A program made the position numbers and the translations under genes. Of a stretch of DNA of 64,000 nucleotides, positions 9,845-50,323 are shown piece after piece. The stretch is from Solidesulfovibrio sp. (GTDB lineage Bacteria > Desulfobacterota > Desulfovibrionia > Desulfovibrionales > Desulfovibrionaceae), in the NCBI RefSeq assembly GCF_038562415.1, contig NZ_JBCFBA010000001.1:310001-374000 (forward strand), read 5' to 3'. Numbering within the stretch: the first letter of the stretch is position 1; each line of letters opens with the position of its first letter. Below the pieces are notes generated by a model, which worked only from the letters and a program-made list of their open reading frames with translations, made no database searches and was not told the DNA's origin.

Positions 9845-11044
9845 GTGCTCACGCGCCCCCAACTCGAAAAATACGCCGATGTCCTGCTCTGGGGCCTGAC
9901 CACCTCCCGGGTCGAGCCCTACAAGCCCGGCGACGTGGTCCTGGTCCAGTTCGAACTGCCCGCCTTGCGCCTGGCCGAGGCCGTCTACGCCAAACTGCTG
10001 GCCCGGGGGCTCAACCCCGTGCCCCGGCTGGCCCTGACCCCGCGCATGGAAAAGGATTTCTACACCGTGGCCGACGAGGCCCAGCTCGTCTTCCAGGCCC
10101 CGGGCCAGGCCGTGCTCCACGAAAACGTCCACGGCGCCATGCATCTGCTCGCCCCGGAAAGCCTGACCCACTTAAGCGCCGTCGACCCCAAGCGCATCGC
10201 CGCCGCGGCCGTGGCCCGAAAGCCCCTGCGCGACATCCTGGTGCGCCGGGAGGAGAAGGGCGAGTTCGGCTGGACCCTGTGCCTGTATCCCACCCGCGAG
10301 CTGGCCGAAAAAGCCGGCATGACCGCCCGGGAATACGCCGCCCAGGTCACGGCCGCCTGCTTCCTCAAGGAGGCCGAACCCGTGGCCGTGTGGCGCGGGC
10401 TCTACGAGGAGGCCCGGGAGATCAAGTCCTGGCTGGACAGCCTCGAGGCGGTCTCGCTTCGCGTCGAATCCGACCACGTGGACCTGACCGTCACCCCGGG
10501 CGAACACCGCCGCTGGCTGGGGCTTTCCGGCCACAACATCCCGAGCTTCGAGATCTTTACCTCCCCGGATTGGCGCGGCACCTCGGGCCGGTACTACGCC
10601 GACCAGCCGTCGTACCGCAGCGGCAACTACGTCAAGGGCGTGCGCCTGACCTTCGAGGCCGGCGTGGTCACCGAAATCGCGGCCGAGCAGGGCGAGGCCT
10701 TCGTGCGCAAGCAGTTGGCCATGGACCCCGGCGCCTCGCGCCTGGGCGAATTCTCGCTGACCGACAGGCGCTTCTCCAAGATCGACCGCTTTATGGCCAA
10801 CACGCTGTACGACGAAAACTTCGGCGGGCCGCACGGAAACTGCCACGTGGCCGTGGGAAGCTCCTATTCCGACACCTTTAACGGCGACCCGGCCGGCCTC
10901 GACGGCGCCCGCAAGGAAGCCCTGGGATTCAACGACTCGGCCCTGCACTGGGACCTGGTCAACACCGAGCCCAAGCGCGTGCGCGCCCGCCTGGCCGACG
11001 GCCGCGAGACCACGATTTATGAGGACGGCCAATTCCGGTATTGA
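9845..11044 (+). CDS. M29 family aminopeptidase
   Basis: A 399-residue cytosolic metallo-aminopeptidase of the thermophilic aminopeptidase (AmpS/PepS) family, which removes N-terminal residues from peptides. Family hallmarks are the N-terminal [12 protein letters not shown], the metal-ligand region [13 protein letters not shown], and the C-terminal [20 protein letters not shown] use the GTG at 9845, preceded by AAAAAGGAA; the frame is open upstream to 9770 without a better site. It is transcribed away from infA. Confidence 0.88.
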
Positions 11045-34479: not shown

Positions 34480-34561
34480 CGGACGCCATTGCGGTATGTC
34501 CCCGTCCCCGGTGTCGCGGCGACCGCGCGCCGGCAACGTTTTTTTCAAGGACCCCCCCATC

Positions 34562-36406
<1,845 letters not shown>

Positions 36407-36433
36407 GCCGCCGGCCTGGCTTTGTTGAACGCC

Positions 36434-36459
36434 AAGCCCGGGTTCGCCCGGGCTTTTTT
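36434..36459 (+). terminator. Rho-independent terminator after typA
   Basis: Stem GCCCGGG / CCCGGGC with a TTCG loop (36436-36453), preceded by AA and followed by six T. Confidence 0.92.
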
Positions 36460-36694
36460 ATGGAAAAAGGTCGAAGGCAGCTTCCGGTGGCCGGCCAACG
36501 GGAGCTTGCCGTTGGCATCCCACAGGCCGACATCCATCAGACCGACATCCATCGGGGGGGCAAACGGGGAACAGGTGCAATGTGCCAGCGGTTGGCGTCC
36601 GTGCTTGGGACTTGCTGACGAAGAATTGGCAGGGCAGGCTTTGTCGGCGTTTGTCGGCGGAAAATGCCAGCGCAAATCGGAACAGCCGTAGTAA

Positions 36695-36722
36695 AGTTAA
36701 CATAATTTACATTATGAGACAA
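36695..36722. other. dif: dif site (XerCD recombination site at the replication terminus)
   Basis: Reading + strand: half-site AGTTAACATAA, central TTTACA, half-site TTATGAGACAA. The reverse complement matches the E. coli dif at 21 of 28 bases, with 19 of 20 from position 7 to 26. AGTTAACATAA is the XerD-type arm and TTATGAGACAA the XerC-type arm. It lies in a gene-free convergent gap where gene orientation switches, which is the expected setting. Confidence 0.88.
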
Positions 36723-36978
36723 ATAGCCGGGAACGGGAAAGCCCTCCCGGCCGCCGCCCGGCGCCTTGCCCAGCCGCTTTCCGTTCCCGGAATTTCGTTT
36801 CGCCGCGCCAATCCCGGAAAACGTCCGCCGCCACCGGATGTTCCCGCTGCCCGGGCCATTTGCCTCGTGTCACGTCCTCGAAAAGGATTATGGCTGTAAG
36901 GATTTATGCTTGTTCAGGTACAACGCCTGCAAAGAAGGTCCGGCATGGGGTCGCTCCATAACGGCATGTGCCGCAACG

Positions 36979-37013
36979 CCGCCGGCCCTGAACACCAGGC
37001 CCAGGGCCGGCGG
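36979..37013. repeat. Strong GC-rich stem-loop
   Basis: A perfect 12-bp inverted repeat, CCGCCGGCCCTG and CAGGGCCGGCGG, with an 11-base loop. No T-run follows on either side. It could end transcripts between typA and ade, or be part of an RNA; nothing decides this. Confidence 0.5.
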
Positions 37014-37095
37014 TCCCTCGGGAAACGGAGCTTGTTATAATAATCTTGTTAATTTCATAGGTTGTCGAAAAAGATATTGATATGTATTACAAAAT

Positions 37096-37112
37096 GTGTA
37101 CATTCTGTACAC
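37096..37112. promoter_or_regulatory. Perfect palindrome GTGTACA-TTC-TGTACAC
   Basis: A 7-3-7 inverted repeat in an AT-rich stretch 15 bases beyond the ade stop. It looks like a binding site for a dimeric regulator, but no promoter or gene next to it is evident. The protein is unknown. Confidence 0.45.
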
Positions 37113-37126
37113 GTTGACTCCCTGCC

Positions 37127-38860
37127 TCAGGCGAACAGCCCGACCCGGGAAAAGGTCGTCACGTCGAAAAGCCCCTGGTCCGTGAGCTTGAGCGACGGAA
37201 TCACCTCCAGGGACAAAAACGACATGGCCATGAACGGATGGGCCAAGGCCTCGGGACCCGCGCCGGCCACCTGGCGGTAGGCCTGGCCCAGGGCCGCCAG
37301 CTGGGCCGTGACCACCTCCAGCGGCGCGTCGCTCATGAGCCCGGCCACGGGCAATCGCACCTGGCCCAGGACCTTGCCGTCGGCCACCACGGCGAAGCCG
37401 CCGCCCGAGACCATGAGCGTGCGTGCGGCCAGCACCATGTCCGCGTCGTTGACCCCGGCCACGATCAGGTTGTGGGCGTCGTGGGCCACCGTGCCGGCCA
37501 CGGCCCCGCGCTTGAGCCCAAGGCCGGACACGAACCCCAGGCCCATGTTGCCCGTGGCCTTGTGGCGCTCGATGACGGCCAGCTTGGCGATATCGCGCTC
37601 GGGGTCGGCCACGGCCAGGCCGTTTGCGATACGGGCCTCCACAATGCGCGCCTCGGTGACGATCTGGCCCGGGATGAGCCCGATGACCCGGTGGCGCGGG
37701 CCGCTGGCCGGGATGGCGAAGCCGGCCTCGGTCAGCTCCCCGCCCACGCGCATGGCCCGGGGCGGCGTCAGGCAGGAATGGTCGGCGAATTCCCAGTCGG
37801 CCAGGTGGCGGCCGTTGAGGAAGACATCCGTGATATCGAAGGTCGTAAGGTCCGTGACCAGCATGAAGTCGGCCCGGTAGCCCGGGGCGATGGCGCCGCG
37901 CCGGCGCAGGCCGAAATACCGGGCCGGGTTGATGGAGGCCATGGCCACGGCCCGAAGCGGCGGCACGCCGCGCGAGACGGCCTGGCGCACCAGGGCGTTG
38001 ATGTGCCCTTCCCGGCTCAGGTCCACCGGGTCGCGGTCGTCGCTGACCAGGGAGAACTGGGTGGAATTGTCCGCCGTGACCAGCGGCAGGAGCGTGTCCA
38101 GGTTCTGTTCGGTGCTGCCCTGCCGGATCATGACGTGCAGGCCCCGGCGCAGCTTTTCCCGGGCCTCCTCCAGTTCCGTGCACTCGTGGTCCGAGCCCGG
38201 CCCGGCCGTGACGTAGGCGTCCAGGGCCCGGCCGGCCAGCCCCGGCGCGTGGCCGTCGATGACCCGCCCCCGGGCCGCCCGCAGCTTGCGCAGCATGTCC
38301 TCGTCGCCGCCAACCACCCCGGGGTAGTTCATGACCTCGGCCAGGCCCAGGATGCGGTCGGGATAGCGGGCCAGCATGGCGGCCACGTCCGAGGCGCCGA
38401 TGCGCGCCCCGGAAGTGGCCATGTCCGTCGCCGGCACGCACGAGGGCATCATGAAGTAGCAGGTCACGGGCACGTCCCGGCTGCAGGCCAGCATGTATTC
38501 GATGCCGGCGAGGCCCAGCACGTTGGCGATCTCGTGGGGGTCGGAGACCACGGCGCAGGTGCCGTGGGGGGCCACGGCCCGGGCGAAGACCGGCGGCGAA
38601 AGCAGCGTCGATTCGATGTGGATGTGGCCGTCGATGAAGCCCGGGCACAGGTAGCGGCCGTCGGCCTCGACCACCGTCGCCGCCTCGCCCCCGGCAAAGC
38701 CGACGACGACGCCGTCGGCCACGGCCACGTCGGCTTCGTGGATTTCGCCGGAAAGGACGTTGAGCACACGGGCGTTTTTGATGCACACATCGGCCGGCGC
38801 CTCACCGCGCGCCACGGCCAGCCGCCGCCGCAGGATGTCGAGGCTTTCGGAATCGGGCAT
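37127..38860 (-). CDS. ade: Adenine deaminase
   Basis: A 577-residue amidohydrolase converting adenine to hypoxanthine and ammonia in purine salvage. The metal site appears as [34 protein letters not shown] and [12 protein letters not shown] follow; the C-terminal region has [19 protein letters not shown] and [15 protein letters not shown], typical of bacterial Ade. The ATG is at 38860, with AAGGAGAGCCC before it. It is divergent from tgt with only 57 bases between the starts. Confidence 0.95.
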
Positions 38861-44363: not shown

Positions 44364-44684
44364 CTAGGCCCGGCCGTTGCCGACGTGTTCGCCTTCCTTG
44401 GCTTGGCCCACGGACTGCTGCTGGGTACGCGTGGCTTCCAGGCGCTTGACGAAGGCGTCGCGGCATTCGTAGCTGCAAAAGGCGTAGACCTTGTCGCCGT
44501 CGCGGGCGCGGATGTCGGCGTCGGCCGGCACGTAGGTGCCGCAGACAGGGTCCTTGACCATTTCGCCGGTGGCGGCCATGCGCTTTTTCGACTCGGCTTC
44601 CTGGTCCTTCTTGCGGCCCCGGTCGCCCATGAACAGCTTGTACAGCACGAAAGCGGCCACGATCAGTATGAGCCAGCGGTACAT
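44364..44684 (-). CDS. Membrane-anchored YHS-domain protein
   Basis: A 106-residue protein with one N-terminal membrane helix (YRWLILIVAAFVLYKLFMG), a charged linker and a YHS domain (KDPVCGTYVPADADIRARDG, then YAFCSYECRDAFVKRLEA). YHS domains bind metals through such cysteines and are found in metal-handling proteins. AAGGAG lies seven bases before the ATG at 44684. It is on its own between folK and the GT39-like gene. Confidence 0.82.
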   Translation of the reverse strand: MYRWLILIVAAFVLYKLFMGDRGRKKDQEAESKKRMAATGEMVKDPVCGTYVPADADIRARDGDKVYAFCSYECRDAFVKRLEATRTQQQSVGQAKEGEHVGNGRA

Positions 44685-44716
44685 AACGCTCCTTGGAGGC
44701 CCTTTTCCAGAGCCGG

Positions 44717-45226
44717 TCAATCCTCGCTCCATAGGCTATTTCCGGAGATTTTGAAAGGGATTTTCGCCAGGGCCTCGGCCACGCTCCCCCCCTGCCCGTC
44801 CGGGATGGGGAGGTCCGGCGCCAGGTCGGCCAGGGGCACCAGGACGAAGGCGCGCTGGCGCAGGCGCGGATGCGGCACGACCAGATCCGGTTCGTCGAGA
44901 CGCTGCCCGCCGAAAAGCAGGATGTCCAGGTCGATGGTCCGGGGGCCGAAACGCCGGTCGGGGTCGCGCACCCGGCCAAGGGCCGCCTCGATGGCCTGCA
45001 AGGCCGCAAGCAGCCGCCGCGGCGACCAGGTGGCGTCGAGTTCCAGGGCCACGACCTGGTTGCGGTAGCCGGGCTGGTCGGGATCGCCCCAGGGCTCGGT
45101 GGCGTAGATCGGGCTGGCGGCGGCGAGCGTCGCCCCCGGGAGTGCGGCCAGGCGCTCCCGGGCGGCGGCGAGAACGGCCTCCCGGTCCCCGAGGTTGGAC
45201 CCCAGGCCGAGGTAGGCCGTAACCAT
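44717..45226 (-). CDS. folK: 2-amino-4-hydroxy-6-hydroxymethyldihydropteridine pyrophosphokinase
   Basis: A 169-residue folate-pathway enzyme that transfers pyrophosphate from ATP to the pterin. It has AYLGLGSNLGDREAVLAAAR, YATEPWGDPDQPGYRNQVV, RRFGPRTIDLDILLFGG and VVPHPRLRQRAFVLVPLADL. The ATG shares its A with the dapL stop (TAATG), so the two are coupled. Confidence 0.96.
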   Translation of the reverse strand: MVTAYLGLGSNLGDREAVLAAARERLAALPGATLAAASPIYATEPWGDPDQPGYRNQVVALELDATWSPRRLLAALQAIEAALGRVRDPDRRFGPRTIDLDILLFGGQRLDEPDLVVPHPRLRQRAFVLVPLADLAPDLPIPDGQGGSVAEALAKIPFKISGNSLWSED

Positions 45227-46395
45227 TAGAGTTTGCCGGCGATGCGGGAAAGCGCCTCTTCCAGGCGGGCCACCGGCACGGTCATGGCGATGCGGAAATA
45301 GCCTTCCCCGGGCGCGCCGAAGCCGTTGCCCGGCGTGACCACCACGCCCGTCTCCTGGAGCACGCGCGTGACGAAGGCGGCCGAGGTCTGGCCGGCCGGC
45401 ACCTTGCACCACAGGTAGAAGGAGGCTTTGGGCGTGCGGCAGGTGATGCCCATCCTGGTCAGGGCGGCCACGGCCACGTCGCGGCGCTCCCTGTAGACGT
45501 CCCGGAACTTGGCGGCATGGGGCTCGCCGTGCCGCAAGGCGGCGATGCCGGCTTCCTGCACAGCCTGGAAGATGCCCGAATCGACGTTTTCCTTGATCTT
45601 GCCCAGGCCCTTGACCAGGCCGGCGTTGCCCACGGCCATGCCGATGCGCCAGCCGGTCATGTTGTAGGTCTTGGACAGGGAATGGAACTCGATGGCCACC
45701 TCGCGCGCCCCTTCGATCTCCAGAATCGACAGCGGCTTGTCCGCAGGATCGTAGTACATCTCGGTGTAGGCGGCGTCCGAGACCACGATGGTGTCGGTTG
45801 CCCGGGCCTTGGCGATAAGCTTCTCGTAGAAGGAACGCGGGGCGGTGGCCGCGGTGGGGTTGTTGGGGTAGTTGACGAAGATCATCTTGGCCCGGGCCCA
45901 CTCGGCATCGGTCACGGCGTCCAGGTCGGGCAGGAAGTCGTTTTGTTCGATAAGCGGCAGGGTTTTGACCTCGCCGCCGCAAAAGCCCGTGGCCACGGGA
46001 TAGACCGGATAGTTGGGCGGGCACACCAGCACCAGGTCGCCGGGGTTGACGTAGGCCAGGGGGAAATGGGCGATGCCCTCCTTGGAGCCGATCAGGCTCA
46101 CCACCTCGCTGGCCGGGTCCAGGGCGACGCCGAAGCGGGCCTTGTACCAGTCGGCCACGGCGGTGCGGAAGGCCAGCAGGCCGACGTAGTCCGGGTACTG
46201 GTGGTTGGCCGGCTTCTTGGCCGCTTGGCACAGGGCCTCGACGATGAAATCCGGGGTGGGCATGTCCGGGTCGCCGATGCCCAGCGAAATGATGTCCACG
46301 CCACGGGCCCGGACTTCGGCCTTGACCCGGTCGATTTCGGCGAAAAGATATGGCGGCAGGGCGGCCAGGCGGTCGGCCATGGGGAATGCGGTCAT
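45226..46395 (-). CDS. dapL: LL-diaminopimelate aminotransferase
   Basis: A 389-residue PLP enzyme converting tetrahydrodipicolinate to LL-diaminopimelate in one step for lysine and peptidoglycan. It begins ADRLAALPPYLFAEIDRVKA; SLGIGDPDMPTPDFIVEAL is the substrate loop; FVNYPNNPTAATAPRSFYEK precedes the PLP lysine in EFHSLSKTYNMTGWRIGMA. This form is usual in Desulfovibrio and related deltaproteobacteria. AAAGGAG sits five bases before the ATG at 46395; the longer frame to 46596 reads through the promoter repeats. Related aminotransferases acting on other substrates cannot be fully excluded. Confidence 0.88.
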   Translation of the reverse strand: MTAFPMADRLAALPPYLFAEIDRVKAEVRARGVDIISLGIGDPDMPTPDFIVEALCQAAKKPANHQYPDYVGLLAFRTAVADWYKARFGVALDPASEVVSLIGSKEGIAHFPLAYVNPGDLVLVCPPNYPVYPVATGFCGGEVKTLPLIEQNDFLPDLDAVTDAEWARAKMIFVNYPNNPTAATAPRSFYEKLIAKARATDTIVVSDAAYTEMYYDPADKPLSILEIEGAREVAIEFHSLSKTYNMTGWRIGMAVGNAGLVKGLGKIKENVDSGIFQAVQEAGIAALRHGEPHAAKFRDVYRERRDVAVAALTRMGITCRTPKASFYLWCKVPAGQTSAAFVTRVLQETGVVVTPGNGFGAPGEGYFRIAMTVPVARLEEALSRIAGKL

Positions 46396-46518: not shown

Positions 46519-46588
46519 CCTTCCCCCTCCGGGAACACGCCATTGAAGCCCGGTCCAAATCGTGTCACTGTCCGGCCCGGGCGCACCC

Positions 46589-47545
46589 ATGAGCACCGCA
46601 AACGCATCCTCCCCCCCTGCCCCCTCCCACCCCTGGGTGGACCGTTACCTGGAGCACCTGGTCGTGGCCAAGGGGCTGTCCGAGCACTCTCTTGCAGCCT
46701 ATTCTACCGATATCACAAGCTTTTTGATTTTCTTAAACACGCATGACGGCGTGCTGGAACGCGTCACCGACGACACGCTGTTCCTCTATCTGATGCATTT
46801 GCGCGCCCGGGGGCTGGCCAGCCGGTCCCTGGCCCGGCACTTGTCGGCCCTGCGGGGATTTTTCGCCTTTGCCGCCGACGAGGCCTGGCTGCCCGGCTCC
46901 CCGGCGGCGCTGATTGAGAACCCCAAGCTGCCGCGCCTGTTGCCCGACGTGCTCTCCCGCGAGGAGGTCGCGCGGCTTCTGGCCGCGCCGGATACCGAAA
47001 CCCCGCTGGGCTACCGCGACCGGACCATGCTGGAACTGCTCTACGCCGCCGGGCTGCGCGTCTCGGAGCTGGTGGGCCTGACGCTTGGCGATTTCGACGC
47101 CCAGGCCGGGCTGTTGCGCGTTTTCGGCAAGGGGGCCAAGGAGCGCCTCACCCCCATCCACGCCCTGGCCCGGGAGTTTCTGGCCACCTATATCGCCACG
47201 GTACGCGGCGCCTTCCGTCCCCGGGAGCCGTTCCTGTTCCTCAACCGCTCGGGCACGGGCCTCACCCGCCAGGCCGTGTGGAAGGGCATCAAGCGCCACG
47301 CCCTGGCCGCCGGCGTGTCCCGGGACATTTCGCCCCACAGCCTGCGCCACTCCTTCGCCACCCATCTGCTCGAAGGCGGGGCCGACCTGCGCACCGTCCA
47401 GATGCTGCTCGGCCACGCCGACATCAGCGCCACGGAAATCTATACCCATGTCCAGGCCGGCCGGCTGTTGGCCGTGCACCGCGCCCACCATCCCCGCTCC
47501 GGCCCGGCGGCCAAACCCGCTCCGGACGAGCCGGAGCAACGTTAA
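46589..47545 (+). CDS. xerD: Tyrosine recombinase XerC/XerD
   Basis: A 318-residue site-specific recombinase. The N-terminal SAM-like core-binding domain (VDRYLEHLVVAKGLSEHSLA) is followed by the catalytic domain with LLYAAGLRVSELVGL (Arg), GKGAKERLTPIH (Lys), the HSLRHSFATHLLEGG (His, Arg) and LLGHADISATEIYTHV (His, Tyr nucleophile). It would act at dif, which lies 10 kb away. The start at ATG 46589 has no clear ribosome binding site; GTG 46562 is another option. Whether it is XerC or XerD is not settled. Confidence 0.9.
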   Translation: MSTANASSPPAPSHPWVDRYLEHLVVAKGLSEHSLAAYSTDITSFLIFLNTHDGVLERVTDDTLFLYLMHLRARGLASRSLARHLSALRGFFAFAADEAWLPGSPAALIENPKLPRLLPDVLSREEVARLLAAPDTETPLGYRDRTMLELLYAAGLRVSELVGLTLGDFDAQAGLLRVFGKGAKERLTPIHALAREFLATYIATVRGAFRPREPFLFLNRSGTGLTRQAVWKGIKRHALAAGVSRDISPHSLRHSFATHLLEGGADLRTVQMLLGHADISATEIYTHVQAGRLLAVHRAHHPRSGPAAKPAPDEPEQR

Positions 47546-47560
47546 AGTGAAACATTACCT

Positions 47561-50323
47561 ATGAGCTTTCCACCAAAGCCGCCCCTGCAAAAGGCCCCGG
47601 TCATCGTCACCGGCCACGCCAACGCCGACTTCGACTGCCTGGCCGCCATCATCGCCGCCGGCAAGCTCTATCCCGGGGCCACGCTGATCTTTCCGGGCAG
47701 CCAGGAAAAAAACCTCCGGCATTTCTTCATCCAAAGCGCGACCTATCTCTTCAATTTCAAGAACTTCAAGGATATCGAGCCGCAAAGCGTCCAGACCCTG
47801 GTGCTGGTCGACACCCGCCAGCGCTCCCGCGTGCCCCACATCGAGCCGGTGTTCGCCAATCCGGGCCTGACCATCCACTGCTACGACCACCACCCGGACA
47901 CCGACGAGGACGTCGCGGCCACGGTCAGCCTGGTCAGGCCCTGGGGCTCCACCACGGCCATCCTCATGGAACGCATCATGGCCGAGAACCTGGAGCTGAC
48001 CACGGACGAGGCCACCATCCTGGGCCTTGGCATCTACGAGGACACGGGCTCGTTCACCTTCGCCTCGACCACCGAGCACGACCTGGCCGCCGCCGCCTGG
48101 CTGCGCGGCCGGGGCATGGACGTGGGGGTGATCGCCGACCTCATGACCCGGGAGCTGTCCTCGGAACAGATCACCATCATGAGCCAGCTCATCGAGTCGG
48201 CGCAAACCCACGACGTCAACGGCGTGGAAGTGGTCATCGCCGAGGCCACCAGCGACCAGTACGTGGGCGATTTCGCCCTGCTCGTGCACAAGTTCCTGGA
48301 CATGGAGAACCTGCGCGTGCTTTTCGCCATCGGGCTCATGAACGACCGGGTGCACCTGGTCGCCCGCTCGCGCACGCCGGACGTGGACGTGGGCAGGATA
48401 TGCGCCTCCCTGGGCGGCGGCGGCCATCCCTACGCCGCCTCGGCCTCCATAAAAAACCGCACCCTGACGCAGGTGCGCGAGGAACTCTTCGGCCTGCTCT
48501 ATTCCCAGGTCAACCCGCAGATCCTGGTGCGCCAGCTCATGAGCAAGCCGGCCGTGTCCATCGAGGAAACCGCCTCCATGCGCCGGGCCGAGGAGATCAT
48601 GACCCGCTACGGCCTGAAAGCCCTGCCGGTCATCGCCGGCAAGGGCAACCGCCGCTGCCTGGGCGTCATCGAGCACGACATCATGGACAAGGCCATCAAC
48701 CATGGCCTGGGCGACGTGCCGGTCGCCGAATACATGATCCGCGACCCGGCCGTGGTCACGCCGGAAACCGACCTCTACCCGGTCATGGAGATCATCCTGG
48801 GCCGGCGGCAGCGGCTGGTGCCGGTGGTGGAAAACGGCAAGCTTTCGGGCGTGGTCACGCGCACCGACCTGGTCAACACGCTGGTCAAGGAACCGGCCCG
48901 CATCCCGGAATCGCTTTTGCCCGAGCGCAAGCGCGACCGCAACATCGGCGGCCTGCTGCGCGAACGACTTCCTAAAGAACTGCTTGAACTTTTGCGCAAG
49001 GCCGGCAGCCTGGGCCAGAGCCTGGGCTACGGCGTCTACGTGGTGGGCGGCTTCGTGCGCGACGTGCTGCTCAAGCACCCCAATTTCGACGTGGACCTGG
49101 TGGTCGAGGGCGACGGCATCGCCTTTGCCGCGGCTATGGTCCGGGAGATGGGCGGCCGGTTCAAGTCCCACCCGAAGTTCAAGACGGCCGTGGTGGTCCT
49201 GCCCGACGGCCAGCGCGTGGACGTGGCCACGGCCCGGCTCGAATACTACGAATACCCGGCCGCCCTGCCCACGGTGGAGCTGTCCTCCATCAAGATGGAC
49301 CTCTACCGCCGGGACTTCACGGTCAACGCCCTGGCCGTGCACCTTTCGCCCGAGCGCTTCGGCGAACTGGTGGATTTCTTCGGCGCCCAGCGCGACATCA
49401 AGGAACGCGTGCTGCGCGTGCTGCACTCCTTAAGCTTCGTCGAGGACCCCACGCGCATCGTGCGGGCCATCCGCTTCAGCGAGCGCTTCGGCTTCCGCAT
49501 CGGGGCGCAAACCGACCGGCTGATCAAGAACGCCGTGCGCCACAACTTCTTCCACAAGCTCTCCGGCGCCCGGGTCTTCCACGAACTGCGCCTGATCCTG
49601 GAGGAGAAAACCCCCCTGTCCTGCCTGCGCCGCATGCAGGAATACAAGCTATTAGCCGCCGTCCATCCGCTGTTGGCCCTGACCCCGGCCCGGGAAGGCG
49701 TGCTCATGGAGGTGGAAAACGTCATCAACTGGTACCGGCTGCTCTACATCGAGCCGGCGCCGCGCACCTGGCTGGTCTATTTCCTGGCCCTGTGCTCGGG
49801 CATGGACGCCCAGCAGTTCGGGGCCGTCGGCAAGCGCCTCAACTTCTCCAAGCGCACGGCCGAGGACCTCGCCCGCCTGCGCGAGATGGTGCGCGACACG
49901 GCGCAGGGGCTTTTCAACTGGGAATACCACAAGGGGCCCCTGTCCGGGCTCTATTTCCTGCTCGAGGACCTGCCCATCGAGGGGGCGCTGTTCCTCATGG
50001 CCCGCAATCCCCGGGAGCCGCTCCAGAAATACGTGTCCCTCTTTCTCACCGGGCTTCGCAACAAGCGGGTGGAAATCACCGGCAACGACCTCAAGAAACT
50101 CGGCATCGAGCCCGGCCCCCGCTATACCGACATCCTGCGCCAGATCACGGCGGCGGTCATCGACGGTCACGCCCCCTGCCGCTCCGAGCAGCTGGAACTG
50201 GTGCGGCGGCTGGCGGCCGGGCGCTCCATCGCGTCTTTGCTGGCCCGGACCACGACCGGCGAGCGCTGCACGCTGCCCGCCGCCACGGCACCGCCCGAAG
50301 CCACGGACGGGGATGAGGCCTGA
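47561..50323 (+). CDS. DHH-CBS-tRNA nucleotidyltransferase fusion protein
   Basis: A 920-residue multidomain protein. Residues about 1-310 are a DHH/DHHA1 phosphoesterase (VTGHANADFDCLAA, YDHHPDTDEDVAATVS, GGGGHPYAASASIKN). Two CBS domains follow at about 320-440 (MSKPAVSIEETASMRRAEEI, MIRDPAVVTPETDLYPVME). The rest is a class II tRNA nucleotidyltransferase/poly(A) polymerase head (YVVGGFVRDVLL, FDVDLVVEGDG) and body (RRDFTVNALAVHL, DPTRIVRAIRFSERFGF). It likely adds A or CCA to tRNA 3' ends. The start is 15 bases after xerD. Confidence 0.9.
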   Translation: MSFPPKPPLQKAPVIVTGHANADFDCLAAIIAAGKLYPGATLIFPGSQEKNLRHFFIQSATYLFNFKNFKDIEPQSVQTLVLVDTRQRSRVPHIEPVFANPGLTIHCYDHHPDTDEDVAATVSLVRPWGSTTAILMERIMAENLELTTDEATILGLGIYEDTGSFTFASTTEHDLAAAAWLRGRGMDVGVIADLMTRELSSEQITIMSQLIESAQTHDVNGVEVVIAEATSDQYVGDFALLVHKFLDMENLRVLFAIGLMNDRVHLVARSRTPDVDVGRICASLGGGGHPYAASASIKNRTLTQVREELFGLLYSQVNPQILVRQLMSKPAVSIEETASMRRAEEIMTRYGLKALPVIAGKGNRRCLGVIEHDIMDKAINHGLGDVPVAEYMIRDPAVVTPETDLYPVMEIILGRRQRLVPVVENGKLSGVVTRTDLVNTLVKEPARIPESLLPERKRDRNIGGLLRERLPKELLELLRKAGSLGQSLGYGVYVVGGFVRDVLLKHPNFDVDLVVEGDGIAFAAAMVREMGGRFKSHPKFKTAVVVLPDGQRVDVATARLEYYEYPAALPTVELSSIKMDLYRRDFTVNALAVHLSPERFGELVDFFGAQRDIKERVLRVLHSLSFVEDPTRIVRAIRFSERFGFRIGAQTDRLIKNAVRHNFFHKLSGARVFHELRLILEEKTPLSCLRRMQEYKLLAAVHPLLALTPAREGVLMEVENVINWYRLLYIEPAPRTWLVYFLALCSGMDAQQFGAVGKRLNFSKRTAEDLARLREMVRDTAQGLFNWEYHKGPLSGLYFLLEDLPIEGALFLMARNPREPLQKYVSLFLTGLRNKRVEITGNDLKKLGIEPGPRYTDILRQITAAVIDGHAPCRSEQLELVRRLAAGRSIASLLARTTTGERCTLPAATAPPEATDGDEA

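What the first reader, a model, noticed from the sequence alone, without database searches (positions are those of the whole stretch)
36695..36722. A dif-like XerCD site marks the replication terminus in this window
The 28-base site has two 11-base half-sites around TTTACA and agrees with E. coli dif at 21 of 28 bases by direct comparison, 19 of 20 in the core. It lies in a gene-free gap between converging genes. dif is known and conserved, but it is usually missed by gene annotation and defines where this chromosome ends replication.
Basis: partly seen in the sequence, partly recalled or inferred. Interest (0 to 1): 0.85.

Follow-up and report, generated by a model that had tools for sequence, protein, structure and literature searches.

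The report
Ordinary dif site at replication terminus
This is the short DNA site where a sulfate-reducing bacterium most likely separates joined sister chromosomes before it divides; it is a standard site of a known kind, and in related species it often lies close to the gene for one of the two enzymes expected to act on it.

Summary
In detail: window 36695-36722 (minus strand TTGTCTCATAATGTAAATTATGTTAACT) matches E. coli dif at 21 of 28 bases, 19 of 20 in the core, in the 720-bp gap between converging typA and ade. The core occurs once in the 5.07-Mb draft (next best 3 mismatches) and, with at most 2 mismatches, in 99 of 119 genomes searched, own included. Over 14 loci of the genus the 28 bases are 98% conserved, the flanks 48-59%. 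XerD, a XerC-like protein and an FtsK gamma domain are encoded. A published D. vulgaris dif agrees at 26 of 28. So: a classical XerCD dif, not new in kind. On the host contig the cumulative skew maximum is 55.8 kb away; in single-contig congener G003 dif lies between clearly positive and negative skew samples.

Additional: xerD lies 9.9 kb away, and within 25 kb of dif in 55 of 68 Desulfovibrionales genomes with both on one contig (75 examined), always reading away from dif; outside the order 3 of 20, one family. Plain conserved gene order explains this: a neighbouring small gene stays with xerD where dif has left. Interest is modest.

The parts
36695..36722 (-). dif: TTGTCTCATAATGTAAATTATGTTAACT, 28 bp
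   Evidence: 21/28 to E. coli dif, 26/28 to D. vulgaris dif; core unique in the draft genome; mean column identity 0.98 in 14 loci of the genus, own included
36712..36722 (-). putative XerC arm TTGTCTCATAA (the more variable arm)
   Evidence: by alignment with E. coli dif; columns 1 and 6 are 0.67 and 0.72 conserved in 43 loci
36706..36711 (-). central hexamer TGTAAA (TTTACA on +)
36695..36705 (-). putative XerD arm TTATGTTAACT
   Evidence: invariant in 43 loci except one T/A column at 0.56
36693..36694 (-). two further conserved T just outside the XerD arm
   Evidence: fractions 1.0 and 0.98 of 43 loci
34550..36406 (+). typA/bipA, left neighbour, reads toward dif (start approximate)
   Evidence: TIGR01394 888.7 bits, over cut-off
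36434..36455 (+). terminator-like hairpin after typA
   Evidence: consensus match only
37096..37112 (-). palindrome GTGTACAGAATGTACAC with T-rich tail, perhaps terminator of ade
   Evidence: consensus match only; no such palindrome in the other 13 loci of the genus scanned
37127..38860 (-). ade (adenine deaminase), right neighbour, reads toward dif
   Evidence: TIGR01178 587.1 bits, over cut-off
44364..44732 (-). small conserved protein of the xerD block (N-terminus looks like a membrane anchor, by eye)
   Evidence: no NCBIfam match at E 1e-8, no Pfam match at 1e-5
44717..45241 (-). folK (start approximate)
   Evidence: TIGR01498 138.1 bits
45226..46420 (-). LL-diaminopimelate aminotransferase (start approximate)
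   Evidence: TIGR03540 597.9 bits
46562..47545 (+). xerD, 9.9 kb from dif, transcribed away from it
   Evidence: TIGR02225 344.1 bits, cut-off 329.6; distance
47561..50323 (+). DHH-CBS-polyA polymerase head protein (A-adding tRNA nucleotidyltransferase-like), directly after xerD
   Evidence: NF041569 901.2 bits, below its cut-off of 1440; Pfam domains

Best explanation
The site is the chromosomal dif of a Solidesulfovibrio species (Desulfovibrionaceae). The XerC-like protein binds the variable arm and XerD the conserved arm; at division FtsK, moving along the DNA toward the terminus, reaches dif and its gamma domain activates XerD; XerD then XerC exchange strands at the borders of the TGTAAA centre and convert chromosome dimers to monomers. 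Shown here: sequence, uniqueness in the draft, conservation, presence of the three protein genes, a contig-wide change of strand bias around the site. Inferred from E. coli: binding, activation, order of strand exchange. The nearby xerD belongs to an old conserved gene block beside dif.
For: Match to E. coli and D. vulgaris dif. Core once exactly in the genome. Core with at most 2 mismatches in 99 of 119 genomes searched (own included), once in 97 of the 99; the reversed control pattern matched in 3 of 119. 28 columns 0.98 identity vs 0.48-0.59 in 20-column flanks (14 loci of the genus) and 0.94 vs 0.35-0.48 (43 loci). XerD over cut-off; XerC-like protein best to TIGR02224, 317.7 bits; FtsK gamma 98.8 bits, over cut-off. 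GGGNAGGG 87 + / 25 - left of dif, 38 + / 96 - right, p 5.5e-15. In single-contig congener G003, skew samples are positive from 1.46 to 3.6 Mb and negative from 3.8 Mb round to 1.0 Mb; dif is at 3.726 Mb.
Against: Cumulative skew maximum on the host contig is 55.8 kb from dif. In G003 the 10 kb on the far side of dif is still slightly positive (0.0096). GGGNAGGG polarity is only 10th of 56 arrangements of the same letters, so it reflects general strand composition and proves no FtsK guide motif. The draft has 51 contigs, so distance to oriC is unknown here. The XerC-like protein is below its curated cut-off of 335.15. In 4 of 11 near-complete relatives worked out by hand, dif is 19-35% of the chromosome from the DnaA-like gene used, not about half.
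Confidence: 0.95

Rival explanations
1. The site is an attachment site or remnant of an element that uses Xer recombination (IMEX), not the chromosome's own dif.
For: Such elements are known to sit at dif (PMC9765430 and PMC5357621, passages).
Against: Core unique in the draft; flanked by housekeeping genes typA and ade; ade adjoins dif in 14 of 14 loci of the genus and typA too in 7 of 14; the core recurs across the order.
Confidence: 0.02
2. dif and xerD are kept together by selection as one module, as xerS-difSL and xerH-difH are, although this is a two-recombinase system.
For: xerD within 25 kb of dif in 55 of 68 same-contig order members (75 examined, 7 with the two on different contigs), 55 of 55 transcribed away from dif; outside the order 3 of 20 same-contig (50 examined), all in one family at 30-174 bp. 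Restricted to contigs I saw to exceed 2 Mb, where drafts cannot bias the count: 15 of 19 in the order, 0 of 11 outside (by hand). Genes of the xerD block are the commonest neighbours of dif, 21-22 of 24 genera within about 10 kb, though 20 of those 43 loci were fetched after I had seen the linkage and are mostly linked ones.
Against: The small gene of the block stays within 6 kb of xerD in 34 of 36 genomes with both on one contig (39 searched, a set enriched for genomes with dif far from xerD), including genomes where dif is 28 kb to over 600 kb away. So dif is less tightly linked to xerD than an ordinary neighbour is; plain conserved order suffices. In G051, G079 and G112 dif and xerD are 155 kb or more apart.
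Confidence: 0.12
3. Chance dif-like sequence.
For: None found.
Against: 0 in 100 shuffles; conservation against diverged flanks.
Confidence: 0.01

Closest known systems
dif of Desulfovibrio vulgaris Hildenborough, Carnoy and Roten 2009 Table 1 (PMC2731167, passages seen)
   Same: 26 of 28 bases, all 20 core bases, intergenic, low G+C, listed 18,398 bp from the skew extreme
   Different: differs at positions 1 and 6, both in the XerC arm; neighbour genes of the D. vulgaris site were not compared here
E. coli dif with XerCD and FtsK
   Same: 21 of 28 bases, 11+6+11 layout, two recombinases, FtsK gamma present
   Different: in E. coli xerD and xerC lie far from dif (recalled); here xerD is 9.9 kb away
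xerS-difSL (streptococci) and xerH-difH (epsilon-proteobacteria), recombinase gene linked to its site (PMC2731167, PMC5357621, passages)
   Same: recombinase gene near its site
   Different: those are single-recombinase systems with a different site; here two recombinases and a classical dif, with several unrelated genes between

Membership tests
Classical XerCD dif | 28 bp, two 11-bp arms around a 6-bp centre, matching known dif | tested here: met
Classical XerCD dif | one copy per chromosome | tested here: met
   (draft of 51 contigs; one exact core, next best 3 mismatches)
Classical XerCD dif | conserved in relatives while flanks diverge | tested here: met
Classical XerCD dif | both XerC and XerD encoded | tested here: met
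   XerD over cut-off; second protein scores best with the XerC model, but 317.7 against a cut-off of 335.15
Classical XerCD dif | FtsK with gamma domain encoded | tested here: met
   PF09397 98.8 bits, cut-off 30.6
Classical XerCD dif | lies at the replication terminus / skew switch | tested here: inconclusive
   host contig maximum 55.8 kb away on a plateau; congener G003: sign change between 3.736 and 3.80 Mb, dif at 3.726 Mb, from samples
Classical XerCD dif | FtsK guide motifs converge on it | tested here: inconclusive
   GGGNAGGG polarised but not beyond same-composition controls
Classical XerCD dif | bound and recombined by XerC/XerD | not testable with these tools
   needs biochemistry
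Single-recombinase dif module (xerS-difSL, xerH-difH) | one recombinase only, site next to its gene | tested here: not met
   XerD and a XerC-like protein both present; 9.9 kb and several genes between site and xerD

The most novel reading that the evidence does not exclude
In Desulfovibrionales the terminus carries a two-recombinase dif-xerD neighbourhood (dif, in some genera a transaldolase gene, small conserved gene, folK, LL-DAP aminotransferase, xerD, polyA-polymerase-like gene) kept together by selection, with xerD read away from dif, perhaps so that XerD is made where and when the terminus is copied; family f60 reached an even tighter xerD-dif arrangement on its own.
Probability: 0.12. 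Interest if true: 0.5.

Novelty: new member of a known kind. Interest (0 to 1): 0.27.

Why it matters
It fixes a terminus marker that gene annotation usually skips and gives a well-supported dif motif for much of this order (28 bp plus two T; one genus has a different centre). The frequent linkage with xerD offers a second landmark for termini in draft genomes, with known exceptions, and a natural test of whether recombinase-site linkage matters in two-recombinase systems.

Tried and rejected
Rejected or failed: (1) an E. coli-like 28-base pattern with up to 3 mismatches finds nothing in the genome; the own site differs from it at more than 3 positions. (2) GGGNAGGG as FtsK guide: polarised but 10th of 56 same-letter patterns. 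(3) The inverted repeat at 36716-36801: flanks in the genus are not conserved. (4) The palindrome near 37096 as a terminus motif: found only in the window among 14 loci of the genus; it scores as terminator-like. Looking about 15-16 kb upstream of its xerD found no site, so linkage failed as a predictor there; a looser pattern found the same exact site with centre TGATAA once in each of 8 of 8 genomes (that pattern also gave chance hits, as did its control), 28-116 kb from xerD in the 7 with both on one contig. (6) A functional tie of dif and xerD: the neighbour control favours plain gene order. (7) Choice of DnaA-like gene: I used the lower-scoring of two after seeing that it sits at the skew switch in G003.

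Literature: six searches (listings and starts of abstracts) showed no paper reporting xerD beside dif in this order. PMC2731167, PMC3025954, PMC5357621 and PMC9765430 were searched for passages; none was read whole. Most subscription journals are not held, so this is weak evidence of absence.

Full report
What is there. Window 36695-36722 reads AGTTAACATAA TTTACA TTATGAGACAA on the + strand, i.e. TTGTCTCATAA TGTAAA TTATGTTAACT on the minus strand. Against E. coli dif as printed in PMC2731167 it agrees at 21 of 28 bases and 19 of 20 in the core; against the D. vulgaris Hildenborough dif in the same table at 26 of 28 and 20 of 20. The site lies in the gap 36407-37126 between typA (+) and ade (-), both reading toward it. 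No Rfam family reaches its gathering score there.

Chance and uniqueness. The inner 21 bases with up to 3 mismatches occur once in the window and in none of 100 shuffles. In the whole 5.07-Mb draft the 20-base core occurs once exactly, and the only other place with up to 3 mismatches has 3.

Conservation. Of 119 genomes searched (own included), 99 carry the core with at most 2 mismatches, 97 of them once and two (G030, G112) at two places; the reversed control pattern matched in 3 of 119. In the 14 loci of the genus (own included) the 28 columns average 0.98 identity to the majority base, the 20-column flanks 0.48-0.59; in all 43 loci that I aligned 0.94 against 0.35-0.48. Two T just outside the XerD arm are also conserved (fractions 1.0 and 0.98 of 43), so the motif extends to 30 bases. 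Columns 1 and 6 of the XerC arm vary; the XerD arm has one T/A column. This is the footprint of a bound site.

Who the host is. The window is therefore from the genus Solidesulfovibrio, order Desulfovibrionales (inferred from these kin and the tool's 'same genus' label; the assembly itself is unnamed).

Machinery. XerD is in the window at 46562-47545 (344.1 bits, cut-off 329.6). A second Xer protein on contig 15 scores best with the XerC model (317.7 bits, below its cut-off of 335.15). An FtsK gamma domain is present (98.8 bits).

Terminus. On 690 of 724 kb of the host contig, cumulative G-C rises to 290,949 and falls after it; dif is at 346.7 kb, 55.8 kb further, on a plateau. GGGNAGGG reads toward dif more often than away on both sides (87/25 left, 38/96 right reversed; p 5.5e-15), and its cumulative count stays between 57 and 64 from about 337 to 390 kb. 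But the motif ranks 10th of 56 same-letter patterns, so I do not claim FtsK guide sequences. In the single-contig congener G003, 20-kb samples are positive from 1.46 to 3.6 Mb; the 10 kb on either side of dif (3.726 Mb) are weakly positive (0.0105 and 0.0096); samples from 3.8 Mb round to 1.0 Mb are negative, and those at 1.25 and 1.40 Mb near the other switch are mixed. The lower-scoring of two DnaA-like genes lies at 1.442 Mb, 48.7% of the chromosome from dif; the higher-scoring one is only 430 kb from dif (my arithmetic). Using the lower-scoring, or only, DnaA-like gene, a choice made after seeing G003, dif is 47-53% away in 7 near-complete relatives (G003, G004, G008, G010, G057, G063, G106) and 19-35% in 4 (G028, G051, G078, G079), by hand; the other 4 of the 15 genomes (G000, G021, G049, G096) were left out because the contig is partial or the two lie on different contigs.

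The neighbour xerD. xerD lies 9,927 bp from dif (core edge to model match) and reads away from it. I examined 65 of the 99 core-carrying genomes, none from family f3, plus G359, G379 and the 8 genomes of g40: 75 in all, 68 with both on one contig, 7 on different contigs (G009, G019, G032, G053, G068, G070, G397). xerD is within 25 kb in 55 of 68 and within 120 kb in 65 of 68; within 25 kb it reads away from dif in 55 of 55, within 120 kb in 64 of 65 (G359 and G379 by hand). In G379 I took the hit cut by the contig end beside dif (300.7 bits) rather than a slightly higher one on another contig (305.6 bits), so that one row is a judgement. dif itself points either way relative to xerD (13 of the 53 have the XerD arm on the xerD side). 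The linked genomes span five families. The second Xer gene is 173 kb or more away in 17 of the 20 genomes tabulated, but 9.6-30 kb in G079, G022 and G062 and about 3.5 kb in G319 (by hand). Outside the order I chose 50 genomes with a listed dif match (the listing was capped): 20 have both on one contig, 3 within 25 kb, all in family f60 at 30-174 bp with xerD reading toward dif. On contigs that I saw to exceed 2 Mb, where fragmentation cannot favour near pairs, the count is 15 of 19 inside the order and 0 of 11 outside (by hand).

What the linkage means. In 43 loci of 24 genera, within about 10 kb of dif, the folK-containing and small-protein families occur in 22 genera, xerD and the polyA-polymerase-like gene in 21, the LL-DAP aminotransferase in 14, a HIT-domain family in 13 and a transaldolase family in 12 (the last two named from one member each; ORF-based, with overlapping false frames). 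20 of these loci were chosen after I had seen the linkage, so these figures lean high; of the 7 loci outside the genus fetched before, 5 have xerD within 10 kb. xerD together with the polyA-polymerase-like gene is older: in 10 of 20 genomes outside the order both lie in the same 20-kb stretch, while the four f60 loci have xerD without it. The control for a special tie: the small gene is within 6 kb of xerD in 34 of 36 genomes with both on one contig (39 searched and enriched for genomes with dif far from xerD; one without a match, two with the genes on different contigs), including seven of g40 and G030, G054, G066 and G112, where dif is 28 kb or more away; in G051 and G079 it is far from xerD as well. 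dif is thus lost from the block more readily than an ordinary gene. Conserved gene order next to a site that has to stay at the terminus explains the pattern; a functional module is possible but not needed.

Verdict. A real, ordinary dif, a new member of a known kind whose closest published relative that I found was predicted in 2009. The xerD neighbourhood is the only part that I did not find described, within the limits of the six searches named in Tried and rejected.

Noticed in passing
L108 about 9946-9973; L109, L110, L111: Family f60 outside the order: a XerD-family gene ends 30-174 bp from a classical dif (core CATAATGGATATTATGTCAA) in G220, G365 and G401 and reads toward it; G305 looks alike by tblastn. 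G220 and G365 also have a second Xer gene. A tight recombinase-site pair in what looks like a two-recombinase system.
   Followed up: partly
genomes G052, G213, G237, G259, G280, G319, G339, G397 (genus g40): All 8 genomes have one exact copy of a dif with centre TGATAA (ATAATGATAATTATGTAAA), which stricter core searches miss; xerD is 28-116 kb away in the 7 with both on one contig.
   Followed up: yes
L115 about 10000 (-) and 10083 (+): Genome G243 (another family) has two full dif-like copies in inverted orientation 83 bp apart.
   Followed up: no
L112 about 7000 and L113 about 7000 (G112); L114 about 10000 (G030): Second dif-like copies in two relatives, possible remnants of elements that use Xer recombination.
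   Followed up: no
L038 3948-8846 (contig C1 from 243948, outside the window): A CRISPR-like array: 73 exact copies of GTTTCAACCCACGCTCCCGCGAAGGGAGCGAC, mostly about 67 bp apart.
   Followed up: no
window 36693-36694: Two T next to the XerD arm are conserved in nearly all 43 loci, so the motif here is 30 rather than 28 bases.
   Followed up: partly
window 44364-44732: Small protein (122 aa) conserved beside xerD in many relatives, no NCBIfam or Pfam match at the thresholds used; 8 of 38 match rows show one in-frame stop.
   Followed up: no
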